From NCBI GenBank assembly GCA_026645735.1, contig JAPKMT010000002.1, positions 62,001 to 126,000 of the forward strand: a stretch of DNA of 64,000 nucleotides, in the 5' to 3' direction. This stretch comes from Flexilinea sp. (GTDB lineage: Bacteria; Chloroflexota; Anaerolineae; Anaerolineales; Anaerolineaceae). The position numbers and the translations under genes were made by a program. Numbering within the stretch: the first letter of the stretch is position 1; each line of letters starts with the position of its first letter. Positions 1,237 to 57,702 of the stretch are shown one piece after another. The notes beneath the pieces were generated by a model that worked only from the letters and a program-made list of their open reading frames with translations, was not told the origin of the DNA and ran no database searches.

Positions 1237-1262
1237 GGATTCACTCTCCAGAATTAAACGCT

Positions 1263-2084: not shown

Positions 2085-2112
2085 GATCCTCGATCTAGTG
2101 GAAATTTTTTAC

Positions 2113-2148
2113 TTGATATCTGTATGCTGTCTACTTGTATGATATCTA
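2113..2148 (-). promoter_or_regulatory. Possible operator upstream of the SDR/sugar transporter operon
   Basis: Two GATATC palindromes at 2115-2120 and 2141-2146 flank related sequence (CTGTATG and CTTGTATGATATC), about 30-60 bases ahead of the SDR start. The TTGTATGATA-like piece resembles operators of FadR-type GntR regulators, which often control sugar-acid operons. No regulator gene lies in the window. This is a weak call from local symmetry only. Confidence 0.25.
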
Positions 2149-2409
2149 ACTATTTCCAATTATAGGATTATTTTTTTGCATTGCTGTCATAATTTTTGCA
2201 ACAGAACTTATGTGATAAATATCCTATTATCGGAATTTCAATAATCGCATAATCCGAGGTGGAATCAGAATTCTTGCGTTACGGACGATTTTAGGAACGT
2301 TAAATTCCTCATGAAAATCAAGAAACCTTACGGATTCATGGCGTGTTAAAAATCAATACGCCGCATCTCGAATCGCTTTTTCGAAAAACAAAATGTGGGA
2401 ATATCCAAC

Positions 2410-2484
2410 AGCAATTCGAAATATGGGGAGGATTCTTTATTGTTGTGATTGATTCGAAAAGCAAGTCAATATTTCGAATTACTG
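2410..2484. repeat. Dispersed AATTCGAAATATG repeat, short form
   Basis: Starts CAGCAATTCGAAATATG and ends CAATATTTCGAATTACTG, the inverse of the start. The 75-base copy lacks the long central hairpin of the full copies but keeps an internal TTATTGTTGTG fragment. It lies in the 495-base gap between the SDR gene and the secreted-protein gene. The rest of that gap shows nothing else apart from the promoter at 2514-2522 and the possible operator near 2130. Confidence 0.8.
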
Positions 2485-2513
2485 AATATTCAAAACAATA
2501 TGAGTAATAAATT

Positions 2514-2522
2514 TGCTATAAT
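2514..2522 (+). promoter_or_regulatory. Extended -10 promoter for the secreted protein gene
   Basis: TGCTATAAT is an extended -10 (TGN plus a consensus TATAAT at 2517-2522), 58 bases ahead of the ATG at 2580. No good -35 is seen at 16-18 bases, as is usual for extended -10 promoters. Confidence 0.45.
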
Positions 2523-2579
2523 AATATAAAGAAATAAACATTGATTTCAATTATTAATCAATTACGAATAGGAGGTACC

Positions 2580-3275: not shown

Positions 3276-3303
3276 TAGTTGATTGGCTTTTCTATTTGAC
3301 TTG

Positions 3304-3335
3304 AATCGGGGAAAATATTTCCCCGATTTTATTTT
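3304..3335 (+). terminator. Intrinsic terminator after the secreted protein gene
   Basis: AATCGGGGAAA (3304-3314) pairs perfectly with TTTCCCCGATT (3318-3328), with a 3-base loop, followed by TTATTTT. Confidence 0.85.
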
Positions 3336-3364
3336 CACAGAGTCTGAAAGACTGATATCCGATT

Positions 3365-4057
3365 TTGAAATTTTCCAACAAACAATCAATGATTATACAA
3401 TCCTTCCATGAAGAGAACTCGAATGCTTTATTGAAAATTGCAGCCGATACAGCTTTCTTTGGCAATCCGGTGGAAGCATTCTTAGAAGACAGACGCTTGT
3501 TTTGTGATATTTTTTATCTATATTACATAACTTATCAGCCACAGAATTGCTGGGTAGCCATGGATCATCAGGCTGTAATTGGATTTCTGGTTGGCTGCCT
3601 TGATTCCAGAGTTCAAGCTCATCAATGGAGAAATTCAATCCTTCCTCGAATCCTTAAAAATATAGTTCTGCGAAAATATAAAATTGGCTCGTTAACCAGG
3701 GATTTCCTCCTCCAATTGTTGCAATCACGGTTAACTGAAAAAAAGAACAAGATTGATTTATCGTTATATCCCGCCCATTTGCATATTAATGTGGACGCAA
3801 ATTGGAGAGGCAGAGGTGTCGGGAAAAAGCTTCTGGAAAAATATATTGAGCATCTGTCACAAAACCATATTCCCGGTGTTCATCTTAACACGACTGACCA
3901 AAACATTTCTGCGTGCAAATTATATGAAAGGATGGGTTTTCAACTTTTAAGCTCACATTCAACCAGATTATGGTCCCACTTGATATCCAATTCCGTTGAA
4001 TTACGCCTTTATGGGCTAAGACTAACCGATTCAATGAATATCGATCAAATGGAATGA
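3365..4057 (+). CDS. GNAT family N-acetyltransferase
   Basis: A probable acetyl-CoA-dependent acetyltransferase of up to 230 aa. The acetyl-CoA binding motif A is seen in the C-terminal half as VDANWRGRGVGKKLLEKYIEHL (Q/R-x-x-G-x-G/A pattern). It is followed by the motif B-like segment HLNTTDQNISACKLYERMGF. Substrate unknown. The start is uncertain: TTG at 3365 or ATG at 3389, neither with a clear ribosome binding site. The stop lies one base from the stop of the convergent PIG-L gene. Confidence 0.85.
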   Translation: MKFSNKQSMIIQSFHEENSNALLKIAADTAFFGNPVEAFLEDRRLFCDIFYLYYITYQPQNCWVAMDHQAVIGFLVGCLDSRVQAHQWRNSILPRILKNIVLRKYKIGSLTRDFLLQLLQSRLTEKKNKIDLSLYPAHLHINVDANWRGRGVGKKLLEKYIEHLSQNHIPGVHLNTTDQNISACKLYERMGFQLLSSHSTRLWSHLISNSVELRLYGLRLTDSMNIDQME

Positions 4058-4058
4058 A

Positions 4059-5543: not shown

Positions 5544-5650
5544 CCATGACCATTATGATTGATTGTACGTTATCTGGTTTGGAAAAGAAATCCTATATAA
5601 ATATGGTTATGCAGTTTAATTTGATAAAACTGAGCCAGAATAATTCCTTA

Positions 5651-5744
5651 AATCGAAAGAGTCCGGCATCCCTGAGGGATGCCGGACTCTTTGTTTGCGC
5701 CCCGGGGGGGACTCGAACCCTCAACCTTTTGATTCAAAGTCATA
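5651..5744. repeat. Direct repeat: tRNA-Arg 3' fragment plus terminator (att-like, left)
   Basis: About 90 bases near-identical to 8512-8605. It holds the terminator hairpin and the last 46-48 bases of the tRNA-Arg gene on the reverse strand (acceptor 3' strand, T-arm, variable loop, anticodon loop with TTTG for TTCG). The match stops at the anticodon arm (plus-strand AAAGTCA), and the tRNA 5' half is absent. This is the classic footprint of integration into a tRNA gene. Confidence 0.8.
5654..5693 (-). terminator. Displaced tRNA-Arg terminator
   Basis: AAAGAGTCCGGCATCCC pairs with GGGATGCCGGACTCTTT around a two-base loop: a 17-bp perfect stem with A/T tails on both sides. It is the partner of the hairpin at 8514-8552 that follows the intact tRNA-Arg, and is probably the original terminator displaced by integration. 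Confidence 0.75.
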
Positions 5745-6040
5745 TTGCTAAATAATCCTAATAGCTGTAAAAAGTTATATCTCAATTTGAAATATTGAAT
5801 ATATCCTATAAAATACCTTTTATCGATAAAATATTTTTAAATCAAATGGTTTTTACAAGAATATTATCGATAAGTAATCAACTTTGTATTAATATATAAC
5901 GCTTATATATATTATATAACATACTTTTTATTACTTTTATGTTACTTTTTTTATTATTATAAATAATTAATTTGAGTTATTATTTAAAATATTAAATTAT
6001 TTTAACAATACATAGATTACTTATTTTGAAAGGATTTTTT
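5745..6040. other. AT-rich intergenic, nothing else recognised
   Basis: About 300 bases of very AT-rich DNA inside the island's left end. Several ATATA runs resemble -10 elements but none stands out. Confidence 0.5.
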
Positions 6041-6274
6041 ATGGGATTAACTAAGTGCACCGATTGTGGAAAAGAAATTTCAACTTCAGCAGATTCATGT
6101 CCATTTTGTGGAAAACCAATGTCTTCTATAATTAAATGTCCGAATTGTAAGTCATCTGATGTCGAGAAAATAAGTACCTCTAGTAAAGTTGGTTCAGCCG
6201 TACTATTTGGAGTTTTTGCGATGGGAAAAATAAATAAATCATATGAATGCAAAAAATGTGGATATAAATGGTAA
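6041..6274 (+). CDS. Small double zinc-ribbon protein
   Basis: A 77-aa protein starting at the ATG at 6041, with GAAAGGA seven bases upstream. It holds three Cys pairs: CTDCGK, CPFCGKP and CPNCKSSD, plus CKKCGYKW at the end. The arrangement is two zinc ribbons around a short hydrophobic Gly/Ala segment (VGSAVLFGVFAMGKI). Such proteins are common in island DNA and in bacterial membrane-associated zinc-ribbon families; the function is unknown. Lies inside the tRNA-Arg island. Confidence 0.7.
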   Translation: MGLTKCTDCGKEISTSADSCPFCGKPMSSIIKCPNCKSSDVEKISTSSKVGSAVLFGVFAMGKINKSYECKKCGYKW

Positions 6275-6473
6275 ATTGAATAATAATATCAAGATAAATA
6301 AGATGAAAATTGATTATGCAACCTTTTTTCTGTAAATGAAAGTCAGGAATACTCATCGTTTAATATGTTACACCAACTTTTAGTGCTTTAGACAATTTTT
6401 TATTCGCATTATTTCGTATATGACTATTTTTATTTATTCCATGCTTTTTTCCATAATTTGAAAGGAGATTTGA

Positions 6474-6701
6474 ATGCCTATCACCCCTAATAATCCACCG
6501 AAAACTGAATATGGCTTTTGTTCAGCAATAGATAAAGAAGTTTCAATTCATATTGAATCAAATCGATTACTTGAAAATTATATAGCTGCTACATGCAATG
6601 ATTGCGTTATGAGCCAATGTAAGCATCCAGAATGTGACTATTATGTTGGTGATGTTCCAACAGGCACCATTCGTACTACAAAATATTTTTGCAAAAAATG
6701 A
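6474..6701 (+). CDS. Cys-rich small protein, unknown function
   Basis: A 75-aa protein with a good ribosome binding site (AAAGGAG, spacing 6) before the ATG at 6474. Six cysteines, including CNDCVMSQCKHPEC, suggest a metal-binding knuckle. No signal peptide or membrane segment. I do not recognise the family. It is 200 bases downstream of the zinc-ribbon gene on the same strand. Confidence 0.6.
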   Translation: MPITPNNPPKTEYGFCSAIDKEVSIHIESNRLLENYIAATCNDCVMSQCKHPECDYYVGDVPTGTIRTTKYFCKK

Positions 6702-6821
6702 TTTTCCATTAATTTGATCATATAAAAAAAGCCCCGAAGAAATTTAGTAGGGGTATCAAAAATATTTATCAACTTACTTAATAGCTAAAATTTCATCTTG
6801 GCTTATATCGAATAAAAGAAT

Positions 6822-7511
6822 TTATTGGACTTGTTCGATACCAACCCAAGCAATACTGTTAATAAAACTTCCTTCAAGAAATCTAACCTTTGCTTGAGAA
6901 ATTGTCTTTTCCAATACAATTACTCTTGTTCCGGATGCTACCGTAAAAGCTTCACCGTTAATTATCATTGCTGAAAAACCATAATCATCATTTTTTAGTA
7001 AAGTATCTATTAATTTTGAATAATTTTCTTTTGAAGTTGCGCACAAAATTTCAAGATCGCGATCTCCTTTAACGTACATAGCAACTGCATTACTTGGAAT
7101 ATTTTCATTTATGACATTTTTTGTAGCCTCATATTGCCAATTATTAAATTTTTTCATAATTGCAGTATCCAACCATATGTTATTTACGTCGGCAAGAGTG
7201 AGATTAAATTTTTCTGCTGTTTCCTGAAATATTTCATCAGAATATTTATCGCCGACATACCTACCCTCAACTTGGTCATAATAGTCATATCTTTGTTTGA
7301 TAAATATATAAATTTGTAATTTTCTGTTGTCTTCAGTTGGTTTTGGTGGCAATGTGGCTTTTGGAGTATAAATTGCAGTAATTATTAGTTCTGCGACTTT
7401 TGTTTCAATAGCATCAGATTGATCGACATAATTTGACAGATTATGATTACATGATATTGAAGATAATACACATATAACCGATAATATAATAGTAATAATT
7501 ATATTCTTCAT
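6822..7511 (-). CDS. Putative lipoprotein, unknown function
   Basis: A 229-aa exported lipoprotein. The hydrophobic signal MKNIIITIILSVICVLSS ends in a lipobox-like SSISC, with the acceptor Cys at residue 21. The mature part has a Thr/Pro linker (TPKATLPPKPTEDN) and then a folded domain. The start of the next lipoprotein is 13 bases upstream of it on the same strand, so they form a two-gene operon inside the tRNA-Arg island. No enzymatic motif seen. Confidence 0.65.
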   Translation of the reverse strand: MKNIIITIILSVICVLSSISCNHNLSNYVDQSDAIETKVAELIITAIYTPKATLPPKPTEDNRKLQIYIFIKQRYDYYDQVEGRYVGDKYSDEIFQETAEKFNLTLADVNNIWLDTAIMKKFNNWQYEATKNVINENIPSNAVAMYVKGDRDLEILCATSKENYSKLIDTLLKNDDYGFSAMIINGEAFTVASGTRVIVLEKTISQAKVRFLEGSFINSIAWVGIEQVQ

Positions 7512-7524
7512 TTATCATCTTCCT

Positions 7525-8262
7525 TTATTGACAATACTGAACACCATTTAAACACTTACGTAATTCAGGAAAGGTAATCGCAAGTTTTTCAAACAATATT
7601 AGAAACTCATTATTTTTATCGGAAATCTCATCATTACTTAGCACGACTGTCGACTTTGCCGCATTACATAGCAAGATATAAACAGCATGTAAGTCTAATA
7701 AATTATTGTAAGGAGTCTCATATTCATCAACAGAATTCTTAAGTATTGACATTATCTCTCGTGTTTCTGTTATGCCATCCTCAATAATCGTTATTGCGCC
7801 AATATCTTTTATTTCCTTCATATAATCTATCTCTGCAGATATTTTTGCGACTCCCAATGTAGTCAATAAAAATAGTGTAGATTTATGATCATTTATATTT
7901 TTACAAAAATTATTATTCGAATATATGGTTCTTGCTGTATTTAGTAATTTTGTAACATATTGCGTTTTCAATACTGCTTGTTGAGTCGCTGTTAATTTTG
8001 TAACATATTGCGTTCTCAATATTGCTTGTTGAGCCGCTGTAAATTGAGTAGAAGCTTGTTCTGTATATTTTTGTTGAGGCGTATCTTGTTGAGATGTGGA
8101 TGTAATAATTGGAGTAGAAGAATTAAAATTTTGCGCAAAATAGGTTTTTGCAACAGATGTTCGAATTGCTTGTTCAGTTCGAACTATTGGTTCAACTGGA
8201 AGATTTGAACATCCCGAAATAAGAAAAGCGAATAACACTAGCAACCGCAAATAATATTTCAT
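7525..8262 (-). CDS. Putative lipoprotein with tandem 16-residue repeats
   Basis: A 245-aa lipoprotein with signal MKYYLRLLVLFAFLISGC (acceptor Cys at residue 18). A Gln/Thr-rich region follows the signal. It contains two near-identical tandem units, AAQQAILRTQYVTKLT and ATQQAVLKTQYVTKLL, encoded by a 48-base direct repeat. The C-terminal half has scattered Cys residues (C122, C202, C239, C244, approximate). First gene of the two-lipoprotein operon; function unknown. Confidence 0.65.
   Translation of the reverse strand: MKYYLRLLVLFAFLISGCSNLPVEPIVRTEQAIRTSVAKTYFAQNFNSSTPIITSTSQQDTPQQKYTEQASTQFTAAQQAILRTQYVTKLTATQQAVLKTQYVTKLLNTARTIYSNNNFCKNINDHKSTLFLLTTLGVAKISAEIDYMKEIKDIGAITIIEDGITETREIMSILKNSVDEYETPYNNLLDLHAVYILLCNAAKSTVVLSNDEISDKNNEFLILFEKLAITFPELRKCLNGVQYCQ
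7946..8041. repeat. 48-base tandem repeat (2 units) within lipoprotein gene
   Basis: Units 7946-7993 and 7994-8041 each begin AATTTTGTAACATATTGCG and differ at a few positions. The period is 16 codons, so copy-number change would keep the reading frame. Confidence 0.85.
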
Positions 8263-8511
8263 AATATATGCTTAATTGTATCAGTAATAATTTCAATATT
8301 TTATATTATTTTAACAAGATTATTTCAAAAAGATAGTTTAGATCATTACTGATATTATTGCCATACATAACTAAATTTAATACTGACACCAATTTATAGT
8401 AATAAGTAGAATTTTTTTGTAAAATGTATGTTGTCTGGTCTGTAAAAGAGATTTAAAACAAATGTTGATTACCCAGCCTTATTCGATTGATTTAATTCAG
8501 AAAAGCCCGTT

Positions 8512-8605
8512 TATCGAAAGAGTCCGGCATCCTGAGAGATGTCGGACTCTTTCTTTTGCGCCCCCGGGGGGACTCGAACCCTCAACCTTTTGATTCGAAG
8601 TCAAC
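8512..8605. repeat. Direct repeat: tRNA-Arg 3' half plus terminator (att-like, right)
   Basis: Partner of 5651-5744. It covers the terminator hairpin and the 3' half of the intact tRNA-Arg. Differences are one missing base in the hairpin loop region, a C/G shift in the acceptor run and one G/A in the anticodon loop. Confidence 0.8.
8514..8552 (-). terminator. Terminator of tRNA-Arg
   Basis: AAAGAGTCCGGCATC pairs with GATGTCGGACTCTTT (one G-T pair) directly downstream of the tRNA 3' end on the reverse strand. The T-rich tail of the reverse-strand transcript is short (TTTC). Confidence 0.7.
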
Positions 8606-8631
8606 TACTCTGTCCATTGAGCTACGAGGGC
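8559..8631 (-). tRNA. tRNA-Arg (anticodon TCG)
   Basis: On the reverse strand the acceptor GCCCTCG pairs with CGGGGGC (one T-G). The D-arm is GCTC/GAGT. The anticodon loop CTTCGAA has anticodon TCG at 8596-8598, and the T-loop is TTCGAGT. The discriminator is G and CCA is not encoded. Two imperfections: the first anticodon-stem pair is G-A and the second T-stem pair is A-C. It may decode CGA/CGN. It is the integration site of the adjacent island. Confidence 0.8.
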
Positions 8632-8718
8632 AAATTACTCTTTGAGGACTCCTCATAGAATAACTCCAATAGTATATCACTAAATTTTAAATATATCGGG
8701 AAAAGTTATCAAAGGCAA

Positions 8719-8787
8719 CAGTAATTCGAAATATTGACTTACAATTCGAATCAATCCGGAAGAATTTTTTCGAATTGTTGATTACTG
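8719..8787. repeat. Dispersed AATTCGAAATATG repeat, short form
   Basis: Begins CAGTAATTCGAAATATTG and ends TCGAATTGTTGATTACTG; also has an internal CAATTCGAATCAATCCGG. No long hairpin. It lies in the gap between tRNA-Arg and the large membrane-protein gene. The other bases of that gap (8632-8718, 8788-8883) show no other feature I can name. Confidence 0.7.
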
Positions 8788-8883
8788 AGAAATTACACGA
8801 CGAATTCCAATTCTTTTGTTATGATTAATAGTTGCATATTCATATTATAAATTTGAAAAAAATTTGATTAAGATCATCAGCGC

Positions 8884-10578
8884 ATGAAAACACAAACCAG
8901 TATCAAGAAACTCCTATTCCCGATTGATTATCACGAATTGACTTCAGCAATCATCATTGCCGTTTTGATGGTATATCCATATTTAAAGCCCTCGTTATTG
9001 TATTTGGATCCGCTTTTTATACTGATTTCCGGTCATTCATTTTCAGGAAGAGATGAGAGTATTCAGCGTTTCGTATCATGGATCTTCCTTATTTTGATCA
9101 TCATCATGATTTATGCGCTTCTATTATTCATATCCAGGCATGTAACGATCACGAAAAACCGGTTTTCTCAGTTGCTTGTTTTCATCGCAGCGCTTGTTTC
9201 TCCGCTTCCGCTCTACAGTCTCTCGTTTCACATGCGCCCAATTCTGGATGATTTTTCATTTATTAATAGAATTCGAAATCAATCACTTTTATCAGCAATT
9301 ATAAATTTTTATCGCGATTGGTCTGGACGTTACATGACGCCCCCGATCACATGGATAGCAAATCTTTTCCCCATCCGGATTTCCGTTATTGGATTTCCGA
9401 TATTGATCCATTTGATGACAATGACAGGCATAAGCGTTCTTTTTTTTACATTCATCCGATCATTCAGCTCCGGAATGAATTCTGATAAAAATCCTCCCCG
9501 ATTGCTATCGATTATCGCAGGCTGTTGTTTCGCATCTTCGATTTTCCTGATTACGCCATCCGCATTCTCTTCCTTATACTGGTTTTCCGGAGGAGTTGTA
9601 TACGGCTTCGGAATAGTGATGGCGATTTTTTCTTTCATGTTCCTTTTTTTGTCAATGACGCAAAATAGGCATTCCTGCCTTTTTTTGATTCTCTCATTAA
9701 CCGGATTGATCGCAGCCTGCGGTTCGAATGAATTAACAGCCATCTCCCTATGTGTACTTTCGCTTTCTACGCTGATCTATGTTTTATTTTTCCCCATGGA
9801 AAAGAAAAGCCGCAAAAAATATGTGATCATATTTTTCATCATTTCAATCATTGCGACATTGGTTTCATTGATCTCCCCCGGTAATCGAATTCGCGCTTCT
9901 TATTTTCCGGAAGGATCAACCCAATTTTCCTTAACATGGGTGTTTGTAAAAATCATACCAGGGATAACAAATTTGTTTATCCTGATGATAAAAAAAATAT
10001 TTGAAAAATCCGGAATTTTTCTGATTTTCACCTTTTTGTTTTTATTTATGGGGAACATACTGTGTTTCGATAAAAAACAGAAACGATTGGCGATTTGGGC
10101 AATTCTCACATTCATCATCGCCGCGTATTTCTGTTTTCTGCCGAACAGTATGATTCAATGGATTCCTGATCGGGCGATGGTTATACCCATATCCTGTTTT
10201 CAAACTGCGGTTTTTCTCCTGGCAATTCTGACCGGATCACTCGTCTTTTCGTCAAAGAATCAACACTTCAGTTTTACGAATCTGGTATTTATTCTTCTAG
10301 TCACATCTTTTGAATGTCTTACTTTTTATAAGGAAAATATTGAATCATGCAGGAAGTTTTCTCTACAATCAGATTTCCGGGAAAAGATGATTCTGCAGCA
10401 AAAAAATACAACCGCTGTAATTGAAACCTGCAGCGTGGATCTGCTTTTTGACGAGCTCATGGATCTAACAGATGATCCGAATTTTTATGTAAACATCGGT
10501 ATGGCTGAATTCTACGATCTGGATCGAATCACAGCCATACAGGATTGTTCGGTTTTAATAGATCCATCTGATGAGTAG
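8884..10578 (+). CDS. Polytopic membrane protein, GT-C-like (DUF6056-like)
   Basis: A 564-aa integral membrane protein with about 11-12 hydrophobic segments. Between the second and third lies a loop with RPILDDFSF followed by FYRDWSGRYMT. An acidic DD pair plus a WSGRY-type motif after it is the pattern seen in a group of GT-C-fold-like bacterial membrane proteins of surface polysaccharide synthesis. The C-terminal 90 residues are soluble and contain DDPNFYVNIGMAEFYDL. The exact activity is unknown. No operon partner; a weak Shine-Dalgarno precedes the ATG. Confidence 0.65.
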   Translation: MKTQTSIKKLLFPIDYHELTSAIIIAVLMVYPYLKPSLLYLDPLFILISGHSFSGRDESIQRFVSWIFLILIIIMIYALLLFISRHVTITKNRFSQLLVFIAALVSPLPLYSLSFHMRPILDDFSFINRIRNQSLLSAIINFYRDWSGRYMTPPITWIANLFPIRISVIGFPILIHLMTMTGISVLFFTFIRSFSSGMNSDKNPPRLLSIIAGCCFASSIFLITPSAFSSLYWFSGGVVYGFGIVMAIFSFMFLFLSMTQNRHSCLFLILSLTGLIAACGSNELTAISLCVLSLSTLIYVLFFPMEKKSRKKYVIIFFIISIIATLVSLISPGNRIRASYFPEGSTQFSLTWVFVKIIPGITNLFILMIKKIFEKSGIFLIFTFLFLFMGNILCFDKKQKRLAIWAILTFIIAAYFCFLPNSMIQWIPDRAMVIPISCFQTAVFLLAILTGSLVFSSKNQHFSFTNLVFILLVTSFECLTFYKENIESCRKFSLQSDFREKMILQQKNTTAVIETCSVDLLFDELMDLTDDPNFYVNIGMAEFYDLDRITAIQDCSVLIDPSDE

Positions 10579-10658
10579 CAATCCGCAATCACAGTCAGGA
10601 AAAGCAGTTGATTGATCGTTTCTTCTCTGAGAAGTTTCAGTTCTCTGAGCAGATTTTT

Positions 10659-11249
10659 TTAATCGGATTTCTTTTTTCCAAATATCTGGCTGTTATTTAA
10701 GAAAAGGTATGTTATGAATGGAATAAATGCCGTCAGAACCATCAGAATCATCGGAGCATGTTCAATTGCTTGATGAATGATCACAAAAATTGTGAAAACA
10801 ATTGAATAGTAGAAATATTTTCGCGCTGTCTTATTCTTTTTGGATAAGAAAAGAATCAAATAAATAATCGCTCCAACAAAATACACAGAAGCTATCAGTT
10901 TTGAATAATCCAAGTTTGAAAAATAATAATAGATGGCAGGTATGGCTGCTTCACTCATGCAAATCAGCAACCAGACCTTTGTGAATTTTCCATATTGAAA
11001 GTCAGGCTGTTTCTCTTTGACCAGACGTTGTTCGTCTTCTTTTTGATCGATTGCCGCTTGTGTGGCCAGAATCTCAGGACTTCCAAAATCAGATGGCAGC
11101 ACTTCCTCTTCAGGTAAAAGCGGTTCGCTTTCTGCCGAATTCTCTGCTTTCTCATTGATTTCTTCAGAGACCGTAATCGTTGGAGCATCACAGAAAGGAC
11201 AATTTTTAATTCCATCCGGAATTTCTTTTCCGCAATATTCACATTCCAT
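10659..11249 (-). CDS. Zinc-ribbon membrane protein, unknown function
   Basis: A 196-aa protein. The start chosen is the ATG at 11249, with GAGGT six to seven bases upstream, giving MECEYCGKEI; the codon at 11273 would add eight residues before the ribosome binding site. A zinc ribbon (CEYCGKEI and CPFCDAP) is at residues 3-25. An acidic linker to about residue 75 follows, then four hydrophobic segments (WLLICMSEAAIPAIYYYF, IASVYFVGAIIYLILFL, YFYYSIVFTIFVII, MILMVLTAFIPFITYLFL). The architecture matches the common bacterial zinc-ribbon membrane proteins whose roles are not known. Confidence 0.7.
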   Translation of the reverse strand: MECEYCGKEIPDGIKNCPFCDAPTITVSEEINEKAENSAESEPLLPEEEVLPSDFGSPEILATQAAIDQKEDEQRLVKEKQPDFQYGKFTKVWLLICMSEAAIPAIYYYFSNLDYSKLIASVYFVGAIIYLILFLSKKNKTARKYFYYSIVFTIFVIIHQAIEHAPMILMVLTAFIPFITYLFLNNSQIFGKKKSD

Positions 11250-11307
11250 ATCTACCTCTTTTTTTAATAACATTAATTCAAAATCTTGAGAGGATGATTT
11301 GTCAATC

Positions 11308-11372
11308 GTTCGTTATTCGAAATTCCGCTCAATATTTCGAGTTAATGGTTCGAAAGAACGTGCCGATTTTTT
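11308..11372. repeat. Degenerate dispersed repeat
   Basis: Contains ATTCGAAATTCCGC, ATATTTCGAG and GGTTCGAAAGAACG, recognisable parts of the dispersed family, in the gap between the zinc-ribbon gene and hisS. Diverged, no hairpin. Confidence 0.45.
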
Positions 11373-18889: not shown

Positions 18890-18948
18890 CAACAATTCGA
18901 AATATGGATATGTATTTCTAATATTTCTTTCCATATTTGAAATCGCTG
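18890..18948. repeat. Dispersed AATTCGAAATATG repeat, short form
   Basis: CAACAATTCGAAATATGG to CCATATTTGAAATCGCTG in 59 bases, nearly a perfect long inverted repeat. It fills the gap between the convergent hypE and FGE-like genes, where it could fold as a stem-loop. Confidence 0.75.
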
Positions 18949-19816: not shown

Positions 19817-19843
19817 ACAATGCACCATCCTCTATATAAAAAA

Positions 19844-19965
19844 AGTAATTTGAAATATGAAAGGAATTCTTTGATGTTCTTATTGTTTTGCGCTTTGCGC
19901 AAAACAATAAGAACATCAAGTTTTCATCCTCTATTCGAAAAATCAATCCAAATTTCGAATTGCTG
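19844..19965. repeat. Dispersed hairpin repeat, full copy
   Basis: A full copy with ends AGTAATTTGAAATATG and AAATTTCGAATTGCTG. The central hairpin has a perfect 21-bp stem (19873-19893 with 19897-19917) and a TTT loop. The outer stem begins GATGTTCTTATTG, unlike the GTTGTTGTGTTG of the copies at 46.6 and 57.6 kb, yet pairs fully. The flank ATCAAGTTTTCATCCTCTAT matches other copies. Confidence 0.9.
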
Positions 19966-23045: not shown

Positions 23046-23169
23046 TGACAATTCGAATTATGGACATACTTTTCGAATCGATCGAGAAAATATGTTGTTG
23101 CAGTGTTTTTGCGCTTTGCGTAAAAACACTACAACAACAATAATTTATTTCCATACTTCGAATAGCTGT
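23046..23169. repeat. Dispersed hairpin repeat, full copy
   Basis: Starts GACAATTCGAATTATGG and ends CCATACTTCGAATAGCTG. The central stem (23093-23114 with 23118-23139) has 22 positions: 20 Watson-Crick pairs, one G-T and one C-A mismatch, with a TTT loop. Between arm and end is TTTTCGAATCGATCGAGAAA, shared with the copies at 46.6, 52.0 and 57.6 kb. It fills most of the gap between the divergent epimerase and ruvB genes. Confidence 0.9.
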
Positions 23170-24255: not shown

Positions 24256-24295
24256 TTCCGAATAAAATTAACTAATTCCAGATCTTCCACTGGTT

Positions 24296-24412
24296 GTCGA
24301 AATTTGAGGAGGATGCATCTTTTCATTGTCTTAAAGGCTGATCGCAATTTCGAACAGACTGAAAAAACATCACAACAACAAAGAATCCTCCACATTTTTC
24401 AAATCGCTGTGT
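24296..24412. repeat. Degenerate dispersed repeat
   Basis: Contains GTCGAAATTTGAGGAGGATG, GCAATTTCGAACAGACTG, ACATCACAACAACAAAGAAT and TTTTTCAAATCGCTG: scrambled or decayed parts of the family. It occupies the centre of the 336-base gap between ruvB and queA, where I see nothing else. Confidence 0.55.
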
Positions 24413-28308: not shown

Positions 28309-28439
28309 CAGTAATTCGAAATTTGAAAAAATCTCATTGCTGTTCTTTGATGTTTTCCTGGCGTTTAACGACTTGAAACCAGGTATTTCGAAAGATCAGC
28401 CAATCTTTCGAATCAATCGAGAATATTTCAAAATACTGT
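28309..28439. repeat. Dispersed repeat, full length with a diverged centre
   Basis: CAGTAATTCGAAATTTG at one end; TCTTTCGAATCAATCGAGAA and TTTCAAAATACTG at the other. The centre (CTGTTCTTTGATGTTTTCCTGGC and on) has a poor hairpin, CCTGGC...AAACCAGG. Ends conserved, stem decayed. Confidence 0.7.
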
Positions 28440-32024: not shown

Positions 32025-32335
32025 AGAAAAAAGTATATCTCATTTGAAAAGGATTTTTCTGATTCAGAGACAGCAATTCAAAAAATGGAAATACTTTCCG
32101 AATAGAGAAAGATATCAAATTTCCTCCCTGATTGCGAAATGCAGGCCTGCATTTTAATTAACACCTTTGATCATAAAATTTTTTGATGAAGTATCATGGA
32201 AAAGTTTTTTCTGTGAACAAAAAACATCCTTATGAAATTTGAAATGTTATTTTTCATAAAATAATAAGTTCGAAATGAATAAAAAAAGAAGATGGTAAAT
32301 AAGAGTGAAATGATTGAAAAGGATGAGGGATTTAG
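32025..32335. other. Intergenic with repeat remnants
   Basis: 311 bases between the HAD operon and btuD. CAGCAATTCAAAAAATGG at 32081 and CTTTCCGAATAGAGAAAGA after it are remnants of the dispersed family (about 32081-32125). The remainder is AT-rich with no other signal. Confidence 0.45.
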
Positions 32336-35164: not shown

Positions 35165-35330
35165 AAAAAATCCCCTCCCGGGGTTTTCAGTTCTGCGATC
35201 CCAAATCCCGGGGAATTAGCTGGCATTGTAAATCAGAGGTCTGGCTTGGATAAATCCATTACAGTTGCGGGTCAGCATCGGTATCGCACCGATTTCTCTT
35301 CTTTACGAATATTGGTATTTATTATATTGC
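35165..35330 (-). ncRNA. Cobalamin riboswitch with terminator
   Basis: On the reverse strand, 35296 to 35238 shows the conserved cobalamin-riboswitch core: GAAATCGGTGCGATACCGAT, GCTGACCCGCAACTGTAATG, then AAGCCAGACC. The family equivalents are the GGTG..CCG hairpin, GC(C/A)ACTG and the AGNCAGGA/CC box. Downstream, AAAACCCC-GGGA-GGGG followed by TTTTTT (about 35165-35185) forms a terminator. A CCCCGGG copy near 35208 could form the alternative pairing. It lies about 80 bases ahead of btuF, so high B12 would stop transcription. Confidence 0.85.
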
Positions 35331-35365
35331 ATTTCTGTGATAATCACCAATTCAGGACAGCAATC

Positions 35366-35433
35366 CAGCAATTCGAAATATGGGAAGAATTACTTGTTTT
35401 TTCTAAAAGACTTATCAAAATTTCGAATGGCTA
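35366..35433. repeat. Dispersed AATTCGAAATATG repeat, short form
   Basis: CAGCAATTCGAAATATGGG at one end and AAAATTTCGAATGGCTAA at the other, with TTACTTGTTTTTTCT between. No hairpin. Sits between the riboswitch and the PHP gene end. Confidence 0.75.
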
Positions 35434-36355: not shown

Positions 36356-36985
36356 AATTTTGTTTTTTAAATTTTTGGCAGGTTATCTGTTCCGAAAAGG
36401 TAACCGAAATACTCATATGCATCGAATGAAACGTCCTTATAATCATTCCCATTCGATAATAAATTGAACAAATAAGTATCTATATAAATGAAATAGAAAT
36501 TGTAATGCTTCAAAAAATAATCCCGTTGTTTTACTCACTTTTGCCTGTATAAAATTATTTTCGGATCAAAATAGTATAAGTTTTGATACTATGAATTGAG
36601 ATTTTCTAATCAACGAGTTCATATGGCTTGGTACATATACCTTGATTAGCAAAATTATATCTAAGAATGGGAAAGTTTACAGTTTTTCTTCCACACTCCA
36701 AAAGGTATCTTTTTCTACCTAATGGAGGTGAATTTAAAAACATAACTGGATTGTAAAAGTAAATGCAAGTAGAAAGTAAAAACTTGATCTCTGAGTAAAA
36801 GCTGCGGAAATACGACAAAAAAAAATTGAATTTACTCATTGAGAAATCGATTTAATGCCAAAATTTTCTGGAAACAGGCGCGTTGAAAAGAGGAATTGCA
36901 TTGTAAGAACTGTTTGGAAACAGTAAAAGCAACCCTGCTTTACGAGTATTCTGTTGGTTAGAAGCGACGCAAGTAATAATACGAA
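36356..36985. other. AT-rich gap, no intact gene
   Basis: About 630 bases after the PHP gene start. Reverse-strand open frames here (36606-36839, 36836-37030) have no ribosome binding site and no protein-like composition. On the forward strand, short protein-like stretches are interrupted by stops, suggesting old decayed sequence. No repeat copy seen. Confidence 0.4.
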
Positions 36986-37745
36986 ATACATACTATTTTC
37001 TGACAAGATCCGATCGCAGAGAAATATCACTCGAAGCGATATGTCTTACGTTCAATAGATCAAGGATGACCGTGCCGTAAAAAGTGCTAAACACATCCAA
37101 TGCAGATAGATCGTTTATCACTTTTCTTTTGTACGAATTAATATGACTCACCATGCGTTGATCGACGTCCGCATCAGAAAATACGAAATGGAATCCCGAT
37201 CGCCAAAAGAAGATAAGCTTCAAGAGTTCACTCAATCGCTATGGGTAAAAGCTGATTATCTGCGCGAACCCAGTTATCCCTATAGCTTTGAAGAAGTGAT
37301 CTGACTGTTATTTAAGCTTGAAGATTTCATTCCGATTGGTATGCGAACGGTTAATGTCGCTGGCACAAAGGTTCACAACGTTGTCTTTCTCGGTGACAAT
37401 ATAATGAGAATTAATCAGGCATTAGCCGCCTTGGCTCAAATGCAATTCCGATTCATGGATGGGTAAATTTTTTTTTAAAGCTATATGAAGACAGGAAAGC
37501 AAACTGGCCGGATAGCATGTCTGTGGATTACGAGTTCGTGAAGCAAAACCGTAAAGCGACCTATTATGATGAATCTATCAAAAAAGTACAGCGTCAGAAT
37601 GAAGGCCAAGCACTTAATGAGATAAAAGCTGAAGACAGTAAATGCCAAGGTCTATCCAAGGGTACCTAGAGCAAAGCAAACTCCAAGAAAAGATCATTGC
37701 AACACGCTTTCGTTTTTATAGCATCCTTAGTATCAATAACCAATA
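36986..37745 (+). pseudogene. Decayed coding region, identity unknown
   Basis: Forward-strand translation gives protein-like stretches broken by stops and frame changes. One is a 53-residue frame from the ATG at 37142 (MTHHALIDVRIRKYEMES ... YSFEEVI). Another covers 37310-37465 (EDFIPIGMRTVNVAGTKVHN ... MQFRFMDG), and one runs from about 37481 to 37668 (DRKANWPDSMSVDYEFVKQN ... CQGLSKGT). Base composition (balanced codons) is unlike the flanking AT-rich gaps. I cannot name the ancestor; a lost mobile-element or defence-island gene is plausible because an AbiE pair follows. Confidence 0.4.
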
Positions 37746-37787
37746 CTTAAAAGCCCAATGTAATTAAGAAAACTGAAATTATGCTTG

Positions 37788-37832
37788 ATTATCACCAGTA
37801 AATCGAGTAAAATGCGATTAACTGGTGATAAT
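37788..37832. promoter_or_regulatory. Large palindromic operator directly before abiEi
   Basis: ATTATCACCAGTAAATCG (37788-37805) and CGATTAACTGGTGATAAT (37815-37832) are inverted repeats matching at 17 of 18 positions. The 9-base centre AGTAAAATG contains a possible -10 (TAAAAT). The right arm ends on the base before the ATG. AbiEi antitoxins are known to bind paired inverted repeats at their own promoter, so this is a strong autoregulation candidate. Confidence 0.75.
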
Positions 37833-38411
37833 ATGATAAAAACAAGCGCTATGATCATTGAAGGACTCAATCAATATAAAAGCCCAGCAGATCGGCTTTC
37901 GAGATTGGTGAAAACGAATCAGTACTATCCAATTGTTAGGGGCTTATATGAAACTGACCCTACAACCCCGCCATACCTCCTGGCTGGTAGTATCTACGGT
38001 CCCTCTTATATCTCATTTGAATATGCTTTGAGTTACTATGGCTTAATCCCAGAAAAGGTCATAGCAGTAACCTCAGCCACATTTGAAAAAAAAAAGAAGA
38101 AAAGATATGAAACACCTTTTGGTGTGTTCCTTTACCAGGATGTTCCGACAGAAGCTTTTCCTTTAGCAATCAGAATGATTCACGAAGGAGAGTATTATTA
38201 TCGGATTGCCAGTCCAGAAAAAGCACTTTGCGATAAGTTGTACACATTAGCGCCGTTGCCAAACCAAAAGAGTCTGTGGCAACTGCTCATTGAGGATTTA
38301 CGCATAGACGAAGAACAGCTTGCGAATATGGATGTCAATCTCGTCGAATACTTGAGTAAAAGTTATTACAGCACGAATATAAAAAAGTTTGCCGCTGTAT
38401 TGAGGAGGTAA
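37833..38411 (+). CDS. abiEi: Type IV antitoxin, AbiEi family
   Basis: A 192-aa antitoxin-like protein from the ATG at 37833; the codon at 37785 lies upstream of the operator and is rejected. The N-terminal part is a winged-helix domain (LVKTNQYYPIVRGLYET, then LAGSIYGPSYISFEYALSYYGLIPE). The C-terminal part carries the usual IASPEKALCDKLYTL motif. It would neutralise the toxin without binding it and repress the operon. The toxin gene starts two bases after the stop. Confidence 0.9.
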   Translation: MIKTSAMIIEGLNQYKSPADRLSRLVKTNQYYPIVRGLYETDPTTPPYLLAGSIYGPSYISFEYALSYYGLIPEKVIAVTSATFEKKKKKRYETPFGVFLYQDVPTEAFPLAIRMIHEGEYYYRIASPEKALCDKLYTLAPLPNQKSLWQLLIEDLRIDEEQLANMDVNLVEYLSKSYYSTNIKKFAAVLRR

Positions 38412-38413
38412 AA

Positions 38414-39277
38414 ATGTATAGACCCATCGAAGAGATGTTGAAAAACTATGAGGTTGAAACAAGGATTGACAGAAAAAATGCGATCAAAGAAATTATTCAG
38501 GAGATTGTTCTTTGTGGATTGAGTAGAGCAGGGATTTTTAGGCATGCGGCTTTTTATGGTGGAACTGCACTTAGGATATTTCACGGATTGGATCGTTTTT
38601 CTGAAGACATGGATTTTTCTCTTATAACCAAAAACCCTGAATTTTCATTAGGAGATTATGTACCAATATTAGAGAAGGAAGTCCGTTCTTTTGGTATCAA
38701 TTTTGGAATTACAGAGAAGCAAAAACGGATGGATAATCATATCCAATCTGCATTTCTAAAGGGGAACACGAGAGAACATATTCTATTGTTTTTTTCGGAT
38801 TCTACAGATTCAAAAACAACTCCTATGGGAGAAGTGATCAAAATTAAGTTGGAGCTTGATGATAATCCTCCTGCCTATGCTACTTTTGAGCGAAAGTATC
38901 GACTGCTGCCAGCTCCGTATGAAGTGAATCTTTATGATCTGCCCTCATTATTCTCTGGAAAAATTCACGCCGTATTGTGTCGGTCCTGGCAAAAGCGAGT
39001 GAAGGGAAGAGATCTCTATGATTATGTATTCTATCTTTCGAAAAAAGTGAGTTTTAATCACAAGCATTTTGTTGAGAGGGTAAAAGAAACGAATTCTTGT
39101 AAGGATGAGGTTCTTGATTTGTCTGGAATAAAAAATCTGCTCTGTGAAAGATTCGATCAGATTGACTATGTTTCAGCCCGTAAGGACGTTGAACCATTTA
39201 TAAAGGACTCATCCATGTTGGATCTGTGGAGTGCGGACTTCTTCAAGTCGATAACAGAGGCACTTACGAGCATGTAA
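38414..39277 (+). CDS. abiEii: Type IV toxin, AbiEii family nucleotidyltransferase
   Basis: A 287-aa nucleotidyltransferase-fold toxin of the AbiEii/MenT type, which modifies tRNA or other nucleotide targets and aborts phage infection. The catalytic motif is AFYGGTALRIFHGLDRFSED then MDFSL (GGTxLR and the SxDxD acidic pair) at about residues 47-72. Also typical are LPSLFSGKIHAVLCR and KGRDLYDYVFYL near residue 190-210. All motif residues look intact, so the toxin is probably active. Confidence 0.92.
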   Translation: MYRPIEEMLKNYEVETRIDRKNAIKEIIQEIVLCGLSRAGIFRHAAFYGGTALRIFHGLDRFSEDMDFSLITKNPEFSLGDYVPILEKEVRSFGINFGITEKQKRMDNHIQSAFLKGNTREHILLFFSDSTDSKTTPMGEVIKIKLELDDNPPAYATFERKYRLLPAPYEVNLYDLPSLFSGKIHAVLCRSWQKRVKGRDLYDYVFYLSKKVSFNHKHFVERVKETNSCKDEVLDLSGIKNLLCERFDQIDYVSARKDVEPFIKDSSMLDLWSADFFKSITEALTSM

Positions 39278-39617
39278 CATAATTCCGCTCACAACACGTG
39301 TCGTATGCAGGGAATACAAAACGAACTGAAAATGTAACCCAAAAAACCGAAATTATTCCGAAAGCCTTATTTTTGAATTTCGCAGAATGGAAAAATTCTT
39401 GATTATTTCATTATGTAGGAATTGTTGAAAGCGGTATTGTTTCAATGGACAAGATTAAACTGTGTAAACCAGGAACAACAATTCAACAACTCCCTTTGTA
39501 TTGCATTTATTGGAAAAATGGTATCAAAATAGTATCTTGCCAAGAAACACAAGACTTAAAAACACGATTTCTCCTCGTTGGTTTCGTTTAAAAATAACAG
39601 GAATAAATAAGCTTCTA
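39278..39617. other. Intergenic between abiEii and guaA
   Basis: 340 bases with no gene, hairpin or repeat copy that I recognise. Probably the right margin of the AbiE island. Confidence 0.4.
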
Positions 39618-41144
39618 CTACTCCCATTCGATTGTAGCAGGTGGTTTATCGGTAATATCATAGACAATCCGATTGACTCCCTTTACCTCATTCGTAATAC
39701 GTTTGGATATTTTTGCGAGGATCTCATGCGGAATCGGGGCATATTCGCATGTCATAAAATCTCTGGTAAGGACAGCCCTTAAAGCAATTGTGTAGTCGTA
39801 TGTCCGTCCATCTCCCATAACACCCACAGATCGTAAATCGGTCAAAACTGCAAAATACTGAGAGGCCTGATTACCGGCTGCTTCCAACTCATTTCTAAAA
39901 ATCGCATCTGCCTCACGCAGAATATCCAGCTTCTCTCTAGTAATTTCACCAATGACGCGAACAGCCAAACCCGGTCCGGGAAATGGTTGGCGATTGACGA
40001 TTTCGGCAGGCAACCCAAGTTGCATACCCAATTGTCTGACCTCGTCTTTGAATAGTCCGCGCAAAGGTTCTACGATTCCAGAAAAACCAATTTCTTCCGG
40101 TAGCCCACCTACATTGTGATGTGATTTGATCGTAGCAGCATTGTCGGTTCCACTTTCAATCACATCCGGATAGATCGTTCCCTGTGCCAGGAATTTGGCA
40201 TCGCCGAATTTTTTTGCCTGCTCATAAAAGACTTCTACAAACTCAGCACCAATGATTTTCCTTTTTTTTTCGGGGTCAGTGACACTTTCCAATTTTTTCA
40301 AAAAACGATCCGATGCATCAACACGCACGAACTTTAAAGCCATGTGAGAAAATGCTTTTTCGACAGAATCACCTTCACCCTTCCGCATCAATCCATGATC
40401 TACAAAAATACAAATCAGACGATCGGGGAGTGCCTGAGCCAGTAATGCAGCACAGACTGCGGAATCCACGCCCCCTGAAAGTCCCAACAGAACTTTTTCC
40501 GAACCGACTTGTTCACGTATGACTGAAATTTGTTTATTTAAGTAGTTCTCTACCGAATAATCTCCTGTAGCACCGCAAATCGCGTAAAGGAAATTTTGAA
40601 TTATCTGAATGCCGTTGATGGTAAGTTCTACTTCAGGATGAAATTGTACGCCATAGAGTTTTTTCTCAGTTTTTGAAATCGCCGCATATTTGCAGGAATC
40701 GGACATCGCAATCCCCATAAAACCTTCCGGAAGTTTCTCGATTTGATCGGTGTGGCTCATCAAAACCGTTTGATTTTTTTCCAGACCTTTAAAAAGAGGA
40801 TTCTCCGGATTAATTACAATTTCTCGCTGACCATATTCACTTGTCTTGCAGGGTTGTACCAATCCACCACACAAATAGCTCATCAATTGAGCGCCATAAC
40901 AAATACCTAAAACCGGAATACCCAGATTAAAAAGTTTGGGATCACATTTCGGCGAGTTTTCTTCATAAACACTTTTTGGACCACCGGTAAAAATGATTCC
41001 GATCGGGTTTTTCCGTTGTATTGTTTCAATGGAGATATTCGCCGGACAAATTTCGGAATAGACATTGCATTCACGCACTCTGCGTGCAATTAGATCTTTA
41101 TATTGTCCGCCAAAATCTAATATCAGGATTGTTTGATTTGCCAT
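39618..41144 (-). CDS. guaA: GMP synthase (glutamine-hydrolysing)
   Basis: Converts XMP to GMP with glutamine as ammonia donor. The 508-aa protein is full length. The N-terminal class I glutamine amidotransferase has the nucleophile in GICYGAQLM and the His/Glu in FHPEVE. The ATP-pyrophosphatase P-loop is GLSGGVDSAV. The C-terminal dimerisation domain ends DKPPATIEWE. xpt lies 330 bases upstream on the same strand, so guanine-nucleotide synthesis and salvage are clustered. Confidence 0.97.
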   Translation of the reverse strand: MANQTILILDFGGQYKDLIARRVRECNVYSEICPANISIETIQRKNPIGIIFTGGPKSVYEENSPKCDPKLFNLGIPVLGICYGAQLMSYLCGGLVQPCKTSEYGQREIVINPENPLFKGLEKNQTVLMSHTDQIEKLPEGFMGIAMSDSCKYAAISKTEKKLYGVQFHPEVELTINGIQIIQNFLYAICGATGDYSVENYLNKQISVIREQVGSEKVLLGLSGGVDSAVCAALLAQALPDRLICIFVDHGLMRKGEGDSVEKAFSHMALKFVRVDASDRFLKKLESVTDPEKKRKIIGAEFVEVFYEQAKKFGDAKFLAQGTIYPDVIESGTDNAATIKSHHNVGGLPEEIGFSGIVEPLRGLFKDEVRQLGMQLGLPAEIVNRQPFPGPGLAVRVIGEITREKLDILREADAIFRNELEAAGNQASQYFAVLTDLRSVGVMGDGRTYDYTIALRAVLTRDFMTCEYAPIPHEILAKISKRITNEVKGVNRIVYDITDKPPATIEWE

Positions 41145-46374: not shown

Positions 46375-46546
46375 GGAAAAAATCCCCTATCATAAAACCG
46401 ATTGATTAATACTTACAACCGCAGTAAAATTACGATCCTTTTATCCCTTGGTTTCTTCAGCAGCTACTCATCAATCGAATTCGTTGAAGAATAATGGTAT
46501 TGCTTATTTGATTATAATAGCGATTTTCTGTCAGAAACCGATAATC

Positions 46547-46669
46547 AGCAATTCGAAATATGCGAAGAAATATATGTTGTTGTGTTGTTTTTGCGCGAAA
46601 CGCAAAAACAACACAACAACAAGTTTTCTCAATCGATTCGAAAGGTTGGTTCATATTTCGAATTTCTGT
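46547..46669. repeat. Dispersed hairpin repeat, best full copy
   Basis: Starts CAGCAATTCGAAATATG and ends CATATTTCGAATTTCTG. The central hairpin is a perfect 20-bp stem (46576-46595 with 46601-46620), loop CGAAA. The right arm is followed by AAGTTTTCTCAATCGATTCG. The copy at 57581-57702 is its reverse complement with about 90% identity. Located between the BFN and response-regulator genes. Confidence 0.95.
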
Positions 46670-47610: not shown

Positions 47611-47680
47611 CAACAATTCGAAATATGGATTGATGTTTCGAATAAGAACATCAAAGAATTCCTTTCATATTTCGAATTAG
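47611..47680. repeat. Dispersed AATTCGAAATATG repeat, short form
   Basis: CAACAATTCGAAATATGG at one end and CATATTTCGAATTAG at the other. Inside, GATGTT...AACATC pairs, and AACATCAAAGAATTCCTTTC is the inverse of the left flank of the copy at 19844-19965. A short derivative of that subtype. Confidence 0.85.
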
Positions 47681-47700
47681 AGAAAAATAAATTATAGTTA

Positions 47701-57580: not shown

Positions 57581-57702
57581 CAGTAATTCGAAATATGAAC
57601 CAACCTTTCGAATCGATCGAGAAACTTGTTGTTGTGTTGTTTTTGCGCAAAACGCAGAAACAACACAACAACATATAATTCTTCGCAGATTTCAAATTGC
57701 TT
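57581..57702. repeat. Dispersed hairpin repeat, full copy, inverted relative to 46.6 kb
   Basis: CAGTAATTCGAAATATGAAC to TTTCAAATTGCTTA. The hairpin (57628-57647 with 57653-57672) has 19 Watson-Crick pairs plus one G-T, loop CAAAA. It is the reverse complement of the 46547-46669 copy over its whole length, with about 90% identity. Confidence 0.93.

What the first reader, a model, noticed from the sequence alone, without database searches (positions are those of the whole stretch)
46547..46669. A dispersed intergenic hairpin repeat family with inverted ends
About 20 full or partial copies occur in 64 kb: 2410, 8719, 11308, 18890, 19844, 23046, 24296, 25649, 27078, 28309, 32081, 35366, 46547, 47611, 51189, 51912, 53720, 57581, 57713 and 61305. 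Full copies are 120-125 bp with ends CAGNAATTCGAAATATG / CATATTTCGAATTNCTG and a central 20-22 bp hairpin. All lie between genes, in both orientations. This looks like a non-autonomous element (MITE- or REP-like) or a structured noncoding RNA family. No transposase for it is in the window.
Basis: seen in the sequence. Interest (0 to 1): 0.85.

Follow-up and report, generated by a model that had tools for sequence, protein, structure and literature searches.

The report
Non-autonomous hairpin transposon family (MITE)
The repeats are small gene-less transposons, hundreds per genome, in a Flexilinea-like bacterium; a sister species carries a likely parent transposon with the same ends, and the repeats' central hairpin keeps its pairing while its letters change.

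Summary
The 123-bp copy is at 46546-46668. Its end motif (up to 1 mismatch) occurs 428 times in the 3.35-Mb genome, against 0 for the reversed control. In a 738-kb sample, 120 end pairs were found, 50 of them exactly 123 bp. Their flanks repeat each other over exactly 9 bp: mean identity 0.61 against 0.29 shuffled, 56 of 120 at 7/9 or better, 25 perfect, no comparable signal at 5-8 or 10-12 bp. This is the mark of DDE transposition. Of 9 related ISs examined for ends, 6 have CAGCAAT ends, 3 of them with perfect 9-bp duplications. Eight of 47 tested copies have a plausible empty site in the other species, two gap-free. It is a type-II MITE; Rfam and REP/RAYT readings failed. Unusual: hairpin arms covary (pairing 0.957 within, 0.813 between copies) while the terminal repeats do not (0.801, 0.809), with no G.T excess. 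What keeps the hairpin symmetric is unresolved.

The parts
46546..46668 (+). Full 123-bp MITE copy (reference orientation); no flanking repeat at this copy (0/9)
46546..46562 (+). Left terminal inverted repeat CAGCAATTCGAAATATG
46652..46668 (-). Right terminal inverted repeat CAGAAATTCGAAATATG (read on the - strand)
46575..46596 (+). 5' arm of the central hairpin (22 pairs as aligned, 3-base loop at 46597-46599)
46600..46621 (+). 3' arm of the central hairpin
19843..19965 (+). Full copy, flanking repeat ATATAAAAA/ATAAAAAAA (8/9); plausible empty site in the sister genome, with small gaps
23046..23168 (-). Full copy, flanking repeat TCTTTTGTC/TCTTTTTTC (8/9); a copy in the same gap in the sister genome
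51908..52030 (+). Full copy, perfect 9-bp flanking repeat AAATGACTG
57581..57702 (-). Full copy (122 bp), flanking repeat ACGTTTTAT/AAGTTTTAT (8/9)
2409..2484 (.). Hairpin-deleted copy (76 bp), flanking repeat AATATCCAA/AATATTCAA (8/9)
18890..18948 (.). Hairpin-deleted copy (59 bp), perfect 9-bp flanking repeat ATCCCAAGC; the sister genome keeps a remnant of an end here
47611..47682 (.). Hairpin-deleted copy (72 bp), perfect flanking repeat AAAAATAAA; absent at the colinear site in the sister genome (2-base gap in the joined match)
8719..8780 (.). Short copy, present at the same site in the sister genome with near-identical sequence
35366..35433 (.). Short copy near a cobalamin riboswitch
28309..28438 (.). 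Degenerate copy with two ends
24290..24409 (.). Degenerate copy with two ends (8 mismatches in total)
11271..11347 (.). Degenerate copy with two ends (7 mismatches in total)
32071..32144 (.). Degenerate copy, left end clear, right end weak (7 mismatches in total)

Best explanation
A type-II MITE family. Each full copy is a 123-bp, gene-less transposon with about 17-bp terminal inverted repeats (CAGNAATTCGAAATATG). A DDE transposase encoded by an IS with the same ends, present in the sister species and not found in this genome, recognises the two ends in trans, moves the element and makes a staggered cut that duplicates 9 bp of target. Shown: the ends, the 9-bp duplication, plausible empty sites, the IS with matching ends and its own 9-bp duplication, and IS relatives with CAGCAAT ends. 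Inferred: that this transposase or a close relative mobilised the MITE, and that its DDE residues are catalytic. Copies sit in intergenic DNA roughly in proportion to its length, as expected if insertions into genes are purged. The central 22-bp hairpin is kept as symmetry rather than as sequence in the copies that spread. The most likely cause, not shown, is a DNA-level process (template-switch repair of the palindrome, or a requirement of the source copies for a DNA hairpin) rather than an encoded RNA.
For: 9-bp flanking repeat: 56 of 120 at 7/9 or better, 25 perfect, mean 0.613 against 0.290 shuffled (maximum 0.327 of 200), no comparable signal at lengths 5-8 or 10-12. Autonomous IS L096:821-2452 with CAGCAATTCGAAATATG / CAGTAATTCGAAAAATG, TSD GCATTCTGT on both sides and a 446-aa ORF; weak DDE Pfam matches; D128, D216 and E344 invariant in 9 aligned sequences. 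Of the 15 loci, ten were examined for ends: four, the partner included, have CAG-first ends with a perfect 9-bp TSD (L101, L105, L112, L115), three have CAGCAATTC ends without a resolvable TSD (L102, L104, L114), three have no clear ends (L103, L107, L111). 10 of 47 copies with TSD 7/9 or better have a junction-spanning match in the other species; on checking, 8 are plausible empty sites and two are gap-free, of which one has 96 and 97 aligned bases on the two sides and one has 16 and 99. Hairpin helix: 97.0% of cells paired (G.U included), 17 of 22 pairs with a change on both sides; within-copy 0.957 against between-copy 0.813 (maximum of 2,000 permutations 0.856), terminal repeats 0.801 against 0.809.
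Against: No autonomous copy in the window's own genome (92% complete draft in 86 contigs, so it could sit in a gap). The IS and MITE share only about 17-20 bp at each end. Mobilisation was not observed. The named copy itself has no flanking repeat (0/9). Two of the ten junction-spanning matches are not empty sites: one is another MITE copy, one keeps a MITE remnant. For upkeep of the hairpin after insertion the evidence is mixed: in the sister species 39 copies average 16.8 of 21 pairs, and those with TSD 7/9 or better have lost pairs about as fast as TSD bases; in 7 diverged shared copies, 10 compensated changes stand against 25 that pair in one species only.
Confidence: 0.93

Rival explanations
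1. A structured noncoding RNA or mRNA 3'-end element that spread because its RNA hairpin has a host function (terminator, stabiliser).
For: Strong fold (RNA z -10.8, DNA z -10.1) and strong covariation.
Against: 9-bp TSD and plausible empty sites show transposition. Stem mismatches show no G.U excess: G.T 22, A.C 24 and 20, 27 in the sister species. Context follows intergenic length: 13 of 82 classed rows convergent, against 12,958 of 91,727 intergenic bases. No Rfam family at gathering score.
Confidence: 0.05
2. REP/BIME-type palindromes moved by a RAYT (Y1) transposase.
For: Intergenic, palindromic, high copy number.
Against: No Y1_Tnp match in the genome; 9-bp TSD and an IS with the same ends and a DDE-type transposase.
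Confidence: 0.01
3. For the hairpin only: arms are kept identical by replication template switching (quasipalindrome correction), so the covariation is a mutational product without function.
For: 26 Watson-Crick pair types with both sides changed on 50 copies, 11 of them seen once. One private arm occurs exactly, in both arms, at a single locus of the genome; the other 8 matches differ by 1-2 bases. Possible in-place compensations and a symmetric 3-bp indel in copies shared between species. The process is described in print (PMC8794818: outline, abstract and opening seen; PMC8604942 and PMC7202029: listing with start of abstract).
Against: The sister species' copies show decayed stems, so correction is not strong there. 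Selection on source copies explains between-copy covariation as well. Exchange between dispersed copies was not excluded.
Confidence: 0.4
4. For the hairpin only: a DNA hairpin is needed for efficient transposition or propagation, so only copies with intact stems become sources.
For: Stem pairing exceeds terminal-repeat agreement even in copies with perfect TSD (0.948 against 0.790, 22 copies). The 22 short copies (54-79 bp) look by eye like separate deletions, with no amplified short subfamily.
Against: Three short copies have perfect TSDs, though the deletion may have followed insertion. The partner IS shows no such hairpin near its ends by eye.
Confidence: 0.4

Closest known systems
Prokaryotic type-II MITEs (e.g. 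Chunjie of Geobacter, QMITE1/2 of Coxiella)
   Same: Under 500 bp, terminal repeats, target duplication, intergenic, similarity to an IS confined to the ends (definition and examples read in PMC10969869, section 4)
   Different: Different ends, 9-bp TSD, hundreds of copies, central palindrome whose arms covary between copies
IS4 / ISAs1 / IS1380-like DDE insertion sequences
   Same: Weak Pfam DDE_Tnp_1 and DDE_Tnp_1-associated matches; some of the 9 aligned relatives match IS4, IS1380 or IS701 NCBIfam models. The link of DDE_Tnp_1_assoc to ISAs1 is recalled
   Different: The F. flocculi partner matches no NCBIfam model up to E 1 and falls below both Pfam cut-offs, so its IS family is unassigned
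REP/REPIN with RAYT
   Same: Intergenic palindromes
   Different: No Y1 transposase found, TSD present
ERIC / Correia elements
   Same: Intergenic MITE-like repeats of high copy number (passages of PMC10969869; their palindromic form is recalled)
   Different: Not compared by sequence here; different hosts

Membership tests
MITE (type II) | Total length under 500 bp, no coding capacity | tested here: met
   50 of 120 paired rows exactly 123 bp, all 120 at most 258 bp
MITE (type II) | Terminal inverted repeats of about 4-30 bp | tested here: met
   17-bp ends; 428 matches against 0 control
MITE (type II) | Target-site duplication of fixed length | tested here: met
   9 bp; 56 of 120 at 7/9 or better
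MITE (type II) | Intergenic location | tested here: met
   91 of 110 rows outside mechanically called ORFs (9 of the 91 at stretch edges, unclassed); of the 19 inside, 11 in ORFs of at most 125 codons and 8 at the apparent 5' end of a longer ORF
MITE (type II) | Autonomous IS with the same ends, similarity confined to the ends | tested here: met
   Sister genome L096:821-2452; none found in the own genome
MITE (type II) | Presence/absence polymorphism (empty sites) | tested here: met
   10 of 47 junction-spanning matches; 8 plausible, two gap-free, 2 not empty on checking
MITE (type II) | Mobilisation in trans by the IS transposase | not testable with these tools
   Needs a transposition assay
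REP/REPIN with RAYT | Y1 (RAYT) transposase in the genome | tested here: not met
   PF01797: 0 matches in G000; 5 of 14 control genomes positive
Known Rfam RNA family | Match above the gathering score | tested here: not met
   Only a tRNA and a cobalamin riboswitch in the window; 36 matches up to E 1 at the named copy, each below its gathering score, mostly microRNA-type hairpins
ISAs1/IS4 family (for the partner transposase) | Curated family model over its cut-off | tested here: not met
   Pfam 20.6 and 19.2 bits, below cut-offs 32.3 and 23; no NCBIfam match
ISAs1/IS4 family (for the partner transposase) | DDE triad | tested here: inconclusive
   D128, D216 and E344 invariant in 9 sequences; assigned as catalytic by position only

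The most novel reading that the evidence does not exclude
The central hairpin of this MITE is maintained as DNA symmetry, not as sequence and not as RNA: an element family in which palindrome self-correction, or a DNA-hairpin requirement in transposition, continually renews arm identity while the protein-bound ends drift independently. With hundreds of copies per genome in at least two species it would be a natural experiment on template-switch mutation in bacteria.
Probability: 0.4. Interest if true: 0.6.

Novelty: new member of a known kind. Interest (0 to 1): 0.42.

Why it matters
It gives a MITE family and its likely parent IS in the Anaerolineaceae. My searches of an open-licence paper library found no paper on such elements there: (Anaerolineae + miniature inverted-repeat) listed none, and the one paper listed (PMC10907252, passages seen) describes MITE-like repeats of Thiohalocapsa. 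The many copies of differing age, with hairpin arms that covary and terminal repeats that do not, give a comparative set for a known problem: whether compensatory changes in palindromes arise by selection on structure or by template switching during replication.

Tried and rejected
Known Rfam family: rejected. REP/RAYT: rejected. Terminator-like placement: copies follow intergenic length, with no convergent-gene enrichment. The only DDE_Tnp_1 hit in the own genome (C83, below cut-off) was rejected as partner: it runs off the contig start, and the two ends near it face each other as a separate MITE copy. 17 of the 24 loci of the genome contigs pattern scan (Staskawiczbacteria, Saprospiraceae and others) were rejected by eye as A/T-rich palindromes without CAG ends. 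A weak hit of the copy in another genus (G097, 26 bases, E 1.2e-4) was left aside as too short. Plasmid and phage collections: no match. A solved-structure search for the transposase gave only matches with E 0.4 or worse. Literature: no paper holds MITE + ISAs1 + hairpin, ISAs1 + target site duplication + MITE or Anaerolineae + miniature inverted-repeat. I did not run structure prediction: the tool's list of allowed sources does not name loci from the genome search.

Rows dropped: one search keeps end pairs with at most 4 mismatches per end, 6 in total, 50-260 bp apart. 10 of these 120 rows are longer than 135 bp (8 of them overlap a shorter pairing) and were left out (110 rows, one more overlapping pairing still among them). 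Searches use 76 of 120 (117-127 bp). Searches use the 50 of 76 that are exactly 123 bp. Mismatch-type counts use copies with at least 15 of 21 pairs. One search uses 8 shared copies with hairpins, picked by eye from the 57 own-genome elements; one of the 8 is identical in both species and is left out of the 7. One search leaves out 5 of the 15 transposase loci (short or broken matches). The covariance-model search scored at most 150 candidates per genome.

Full report
WHAT IS THERE. The reference copy is 123 bp, 46546-46668. Its ends are CAGCAATTCGAAATATG and, on the other strand, CAGAAATTCGAAATATG. The end motif with up to 3 mismatches occurs 30 times in the window, mean 1.94 and largest 7 in 100 shuffles. 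In the whole genome (G000, 3.35 Mb, 86 contigs, 92% complete) it occurs 428 times with at most 1 mismatch, against 0 for the reversed pattern. A covariance model, with at most 150 candidates scored per genome, gave 150 matches in G000, 150 in G010, 136 in G003, 52 in G008, 1 in G002 and 0 in the other 9 of 14 genus genomes. In 737,952 bases of the own genome I found 120 end pairs; 50 are exactly 123 bp. About 110 copies in 738 kb extrapolate to roughly 500 per genome (my estimate).

WHICH ORGANISM. The sister genome G010 has contigs of 2,313,929 and 674,873 bases, the lengths of NZ_DF968181 and NZ_DF968180 of Flexilinea flocculi TC1. The window's genome is in the same genus by the tool's classification. 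A two-ended pattern scan of named genomes found 24 stretches. By inspection, 6 in F. flocculi and 1 in an uncultured Anaerolineaceae MAG are true copies; the other 17 are unrelated A/T-rich palindromes.

IT TRANSPOSES. At exactly 9 bp, the bases left and right of the pairs agree at 0.613, against 0.290 after shuffling partners (maximum 0.327 of 200). Lengths 5-8 and 10-12 show no comparable signal: the highest mean is 0.335 at 5 bp, and 8 and 10 bp exceed their shuffle maxima by only 0.001. 25 of 120 are perfect and 56 of 120 agree at 7/9 or better. The named copy itself has none (0/9). Of 47 copies with 7/9 or better in two colinear regions shared with G010, 10 have a junction-spanning match in the other species. 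Checked one by one, one of the ten is another MITE copy and one (window 18890) keeps a MITE remnant. The other eight are plausible empty sites. Two are gap-free: a G010 copy with TSD GATTTTTAT/GATTCTTAT, where G000 has GATTTTTAT once (96 and 97 aligned bases), and a G010 copy with TSD GGAATAATT (16 and 99 aligned bases). The rest, including window 19843 and 47611, have small gaps near or beyond the junction. Other copies are shared by both species, so the family predates their split and has also moved since.

THE PARTNER. A search of 14 genus genomes for DDE_Tnp_1 gave 16 matches. One, below the cut-off, in G010 (C1:422189-422773), lies between two ends of the family. The element is 1632 bp (L096:821-2452), with ends CAGCAATTCGAAATATG and CAGTAATTCGAAAAATG, the 9-bp repeat GCATTCTGT on both sides, and one 446-aa ORF. 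The protein matches DDE_Tnp_1_assoc and DDE_Tnp_1 below their cut-offs and no NCBIfam model. Of 301 genomes searched with it, 10 have a match at E 1e-5; G000 has none. Of 10 loci examined for ends (of 15), the partner (L101), L105 (CAGCAATTCCAAATTTG), L112 (CAGCAATTCCCGG) and L115 (CAGCAATGAAGAA) have perfect 9-bp repeats. L102 (CAGCAATTCTAAATATG, at a contig end), L104 and L114 have CAGCAATTC ends without a resolvable repeat. L103, L107 and L111 gave no clear ends. Nine aligned transposases share invariant D128, D216 and E344. The MITE shares only the ends with the IS, which is the type-II definition in PMC10969869 (section 4 read).

WHERE IT INSERTS. Of 110 sampled rows, 44 lie between co-directional, 25 between divergent and 13 between convergent genes, 9 at stretch edges and 19 in mechanically called ORFs (11 in ORFs of at most 125 codons, 8 at the apparent 5' end of a longer one). 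Intergenic bases split 55,466 / 23,303 / 12,958 in the same order. There is no preference for gene 3' ends.

THE HAIRPIN. On 50 copies of 123 bp the central helix pairs in 97.0% of cells and 17 of 22 pairs have changes on both sides; the terminal repeats pair in 85.4% with 2 of 16 such pairs (G.U counted as paired). Counted as strict Watson-Crick, the hairpin pairs at 0.957 within a copy and 0.813 between copies (2,000 permutations, maximum 0.856), while the terminal repeats pair at 0.801 within and 0.809 between. So the ends are conserved as sequence, each on its own, and the hairpin is conserved as symmetry. 26 Watson-Crick pair types have both sides changed, 11 seen once; 24 non-Watson-Crick types are seen once. 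One such arm is found exactly, in both arms, at only one locus of the genome. Mismatches in own copies are G.T 22, A.C 24, other 45, and in F. flocculi copies G.T 20, A.C 27; selection on an RNA of one strand should favour G.T.

DOES UPKEEP CONTINUE AFTER INSERTION? Results conflict. In G000, copies with TSD 7-8/9 pair as well as those with 9/9 (0.945 and 0.948), with 0.841 at TSD 4-6 and 0.899 at 0-3 (76 copies). In the sister species 39 copies average 16.8 of 21 pairs, and the 16 with TSD 7/9 or better have, counted by hand from that list, pairing 0.81 beside TSD identity 0.85, as expected of neutral decay. In 7 diverged copies shared by both species, 92 of 133 pairs are unchanged, 10 changed with pairing kept in both, 25 pair in only one species, 2 other, 4 unaligned. 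By a rough hand estimate, independent change at 25% per site would give about 3 and 50. The 22 short copies (54-79 bp) look by eye like separate deletions. Template switching (PMC8794818; outline, abstract and opening seen) and a DNA-hairpin requirement in source copies both remain open, and exchange between dispersed copies was not tested.

VERDICT. A MITE family with its probable parent IS and target duplication identified; new as a family as far as my searches go, ordinary in kind. The covarying hairpin beside non-covarying ends is the part worth a specialist's time.

Noticed in passing
window 5694-8603: A 49-bp piece overlapping the tRNA-Arg gene (8558-8631) is repeated at 5694-5742 (96%). 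The 2.8 kb between them (two ORFs over 200 codons on the - strand) is absent from the colinear sister genome: it looks like a small element integrated in a tRNA gene.
   Followed up: partly
window 36356-39621: About 3.3 kb here against about 0.26 kb at the colinear place in the sister genome.
   Followed up: no
window 35215-35344: Cobalamin riboswitch (- strand) lying about 20 bp from a short MITE copy at 35366.
   Followed up: no
window 7945-8040: Two tandem copies of a 48-bp unit, 94% alike.
   Followed up: no
window 1-11273; G000:C11:12837-24248: Blocks 90-92% identical to the sister genome while most other blocks are 74-89%; one MITE copy with flanks (C11:16225-16347) is 183/183 identical. 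Suggests recent exchange between the species.
   Followed up: partly
L096:40-875: Several similar overlapping reading frames, as of another repeat, upstream of the IS in the sister genome.
   Followed up: no
window 47611-47682 and its colinear site: The sister genome has two AAAAATA units one base apart where the MITE sits here, which might be an excision footprint.
   Followed up: no
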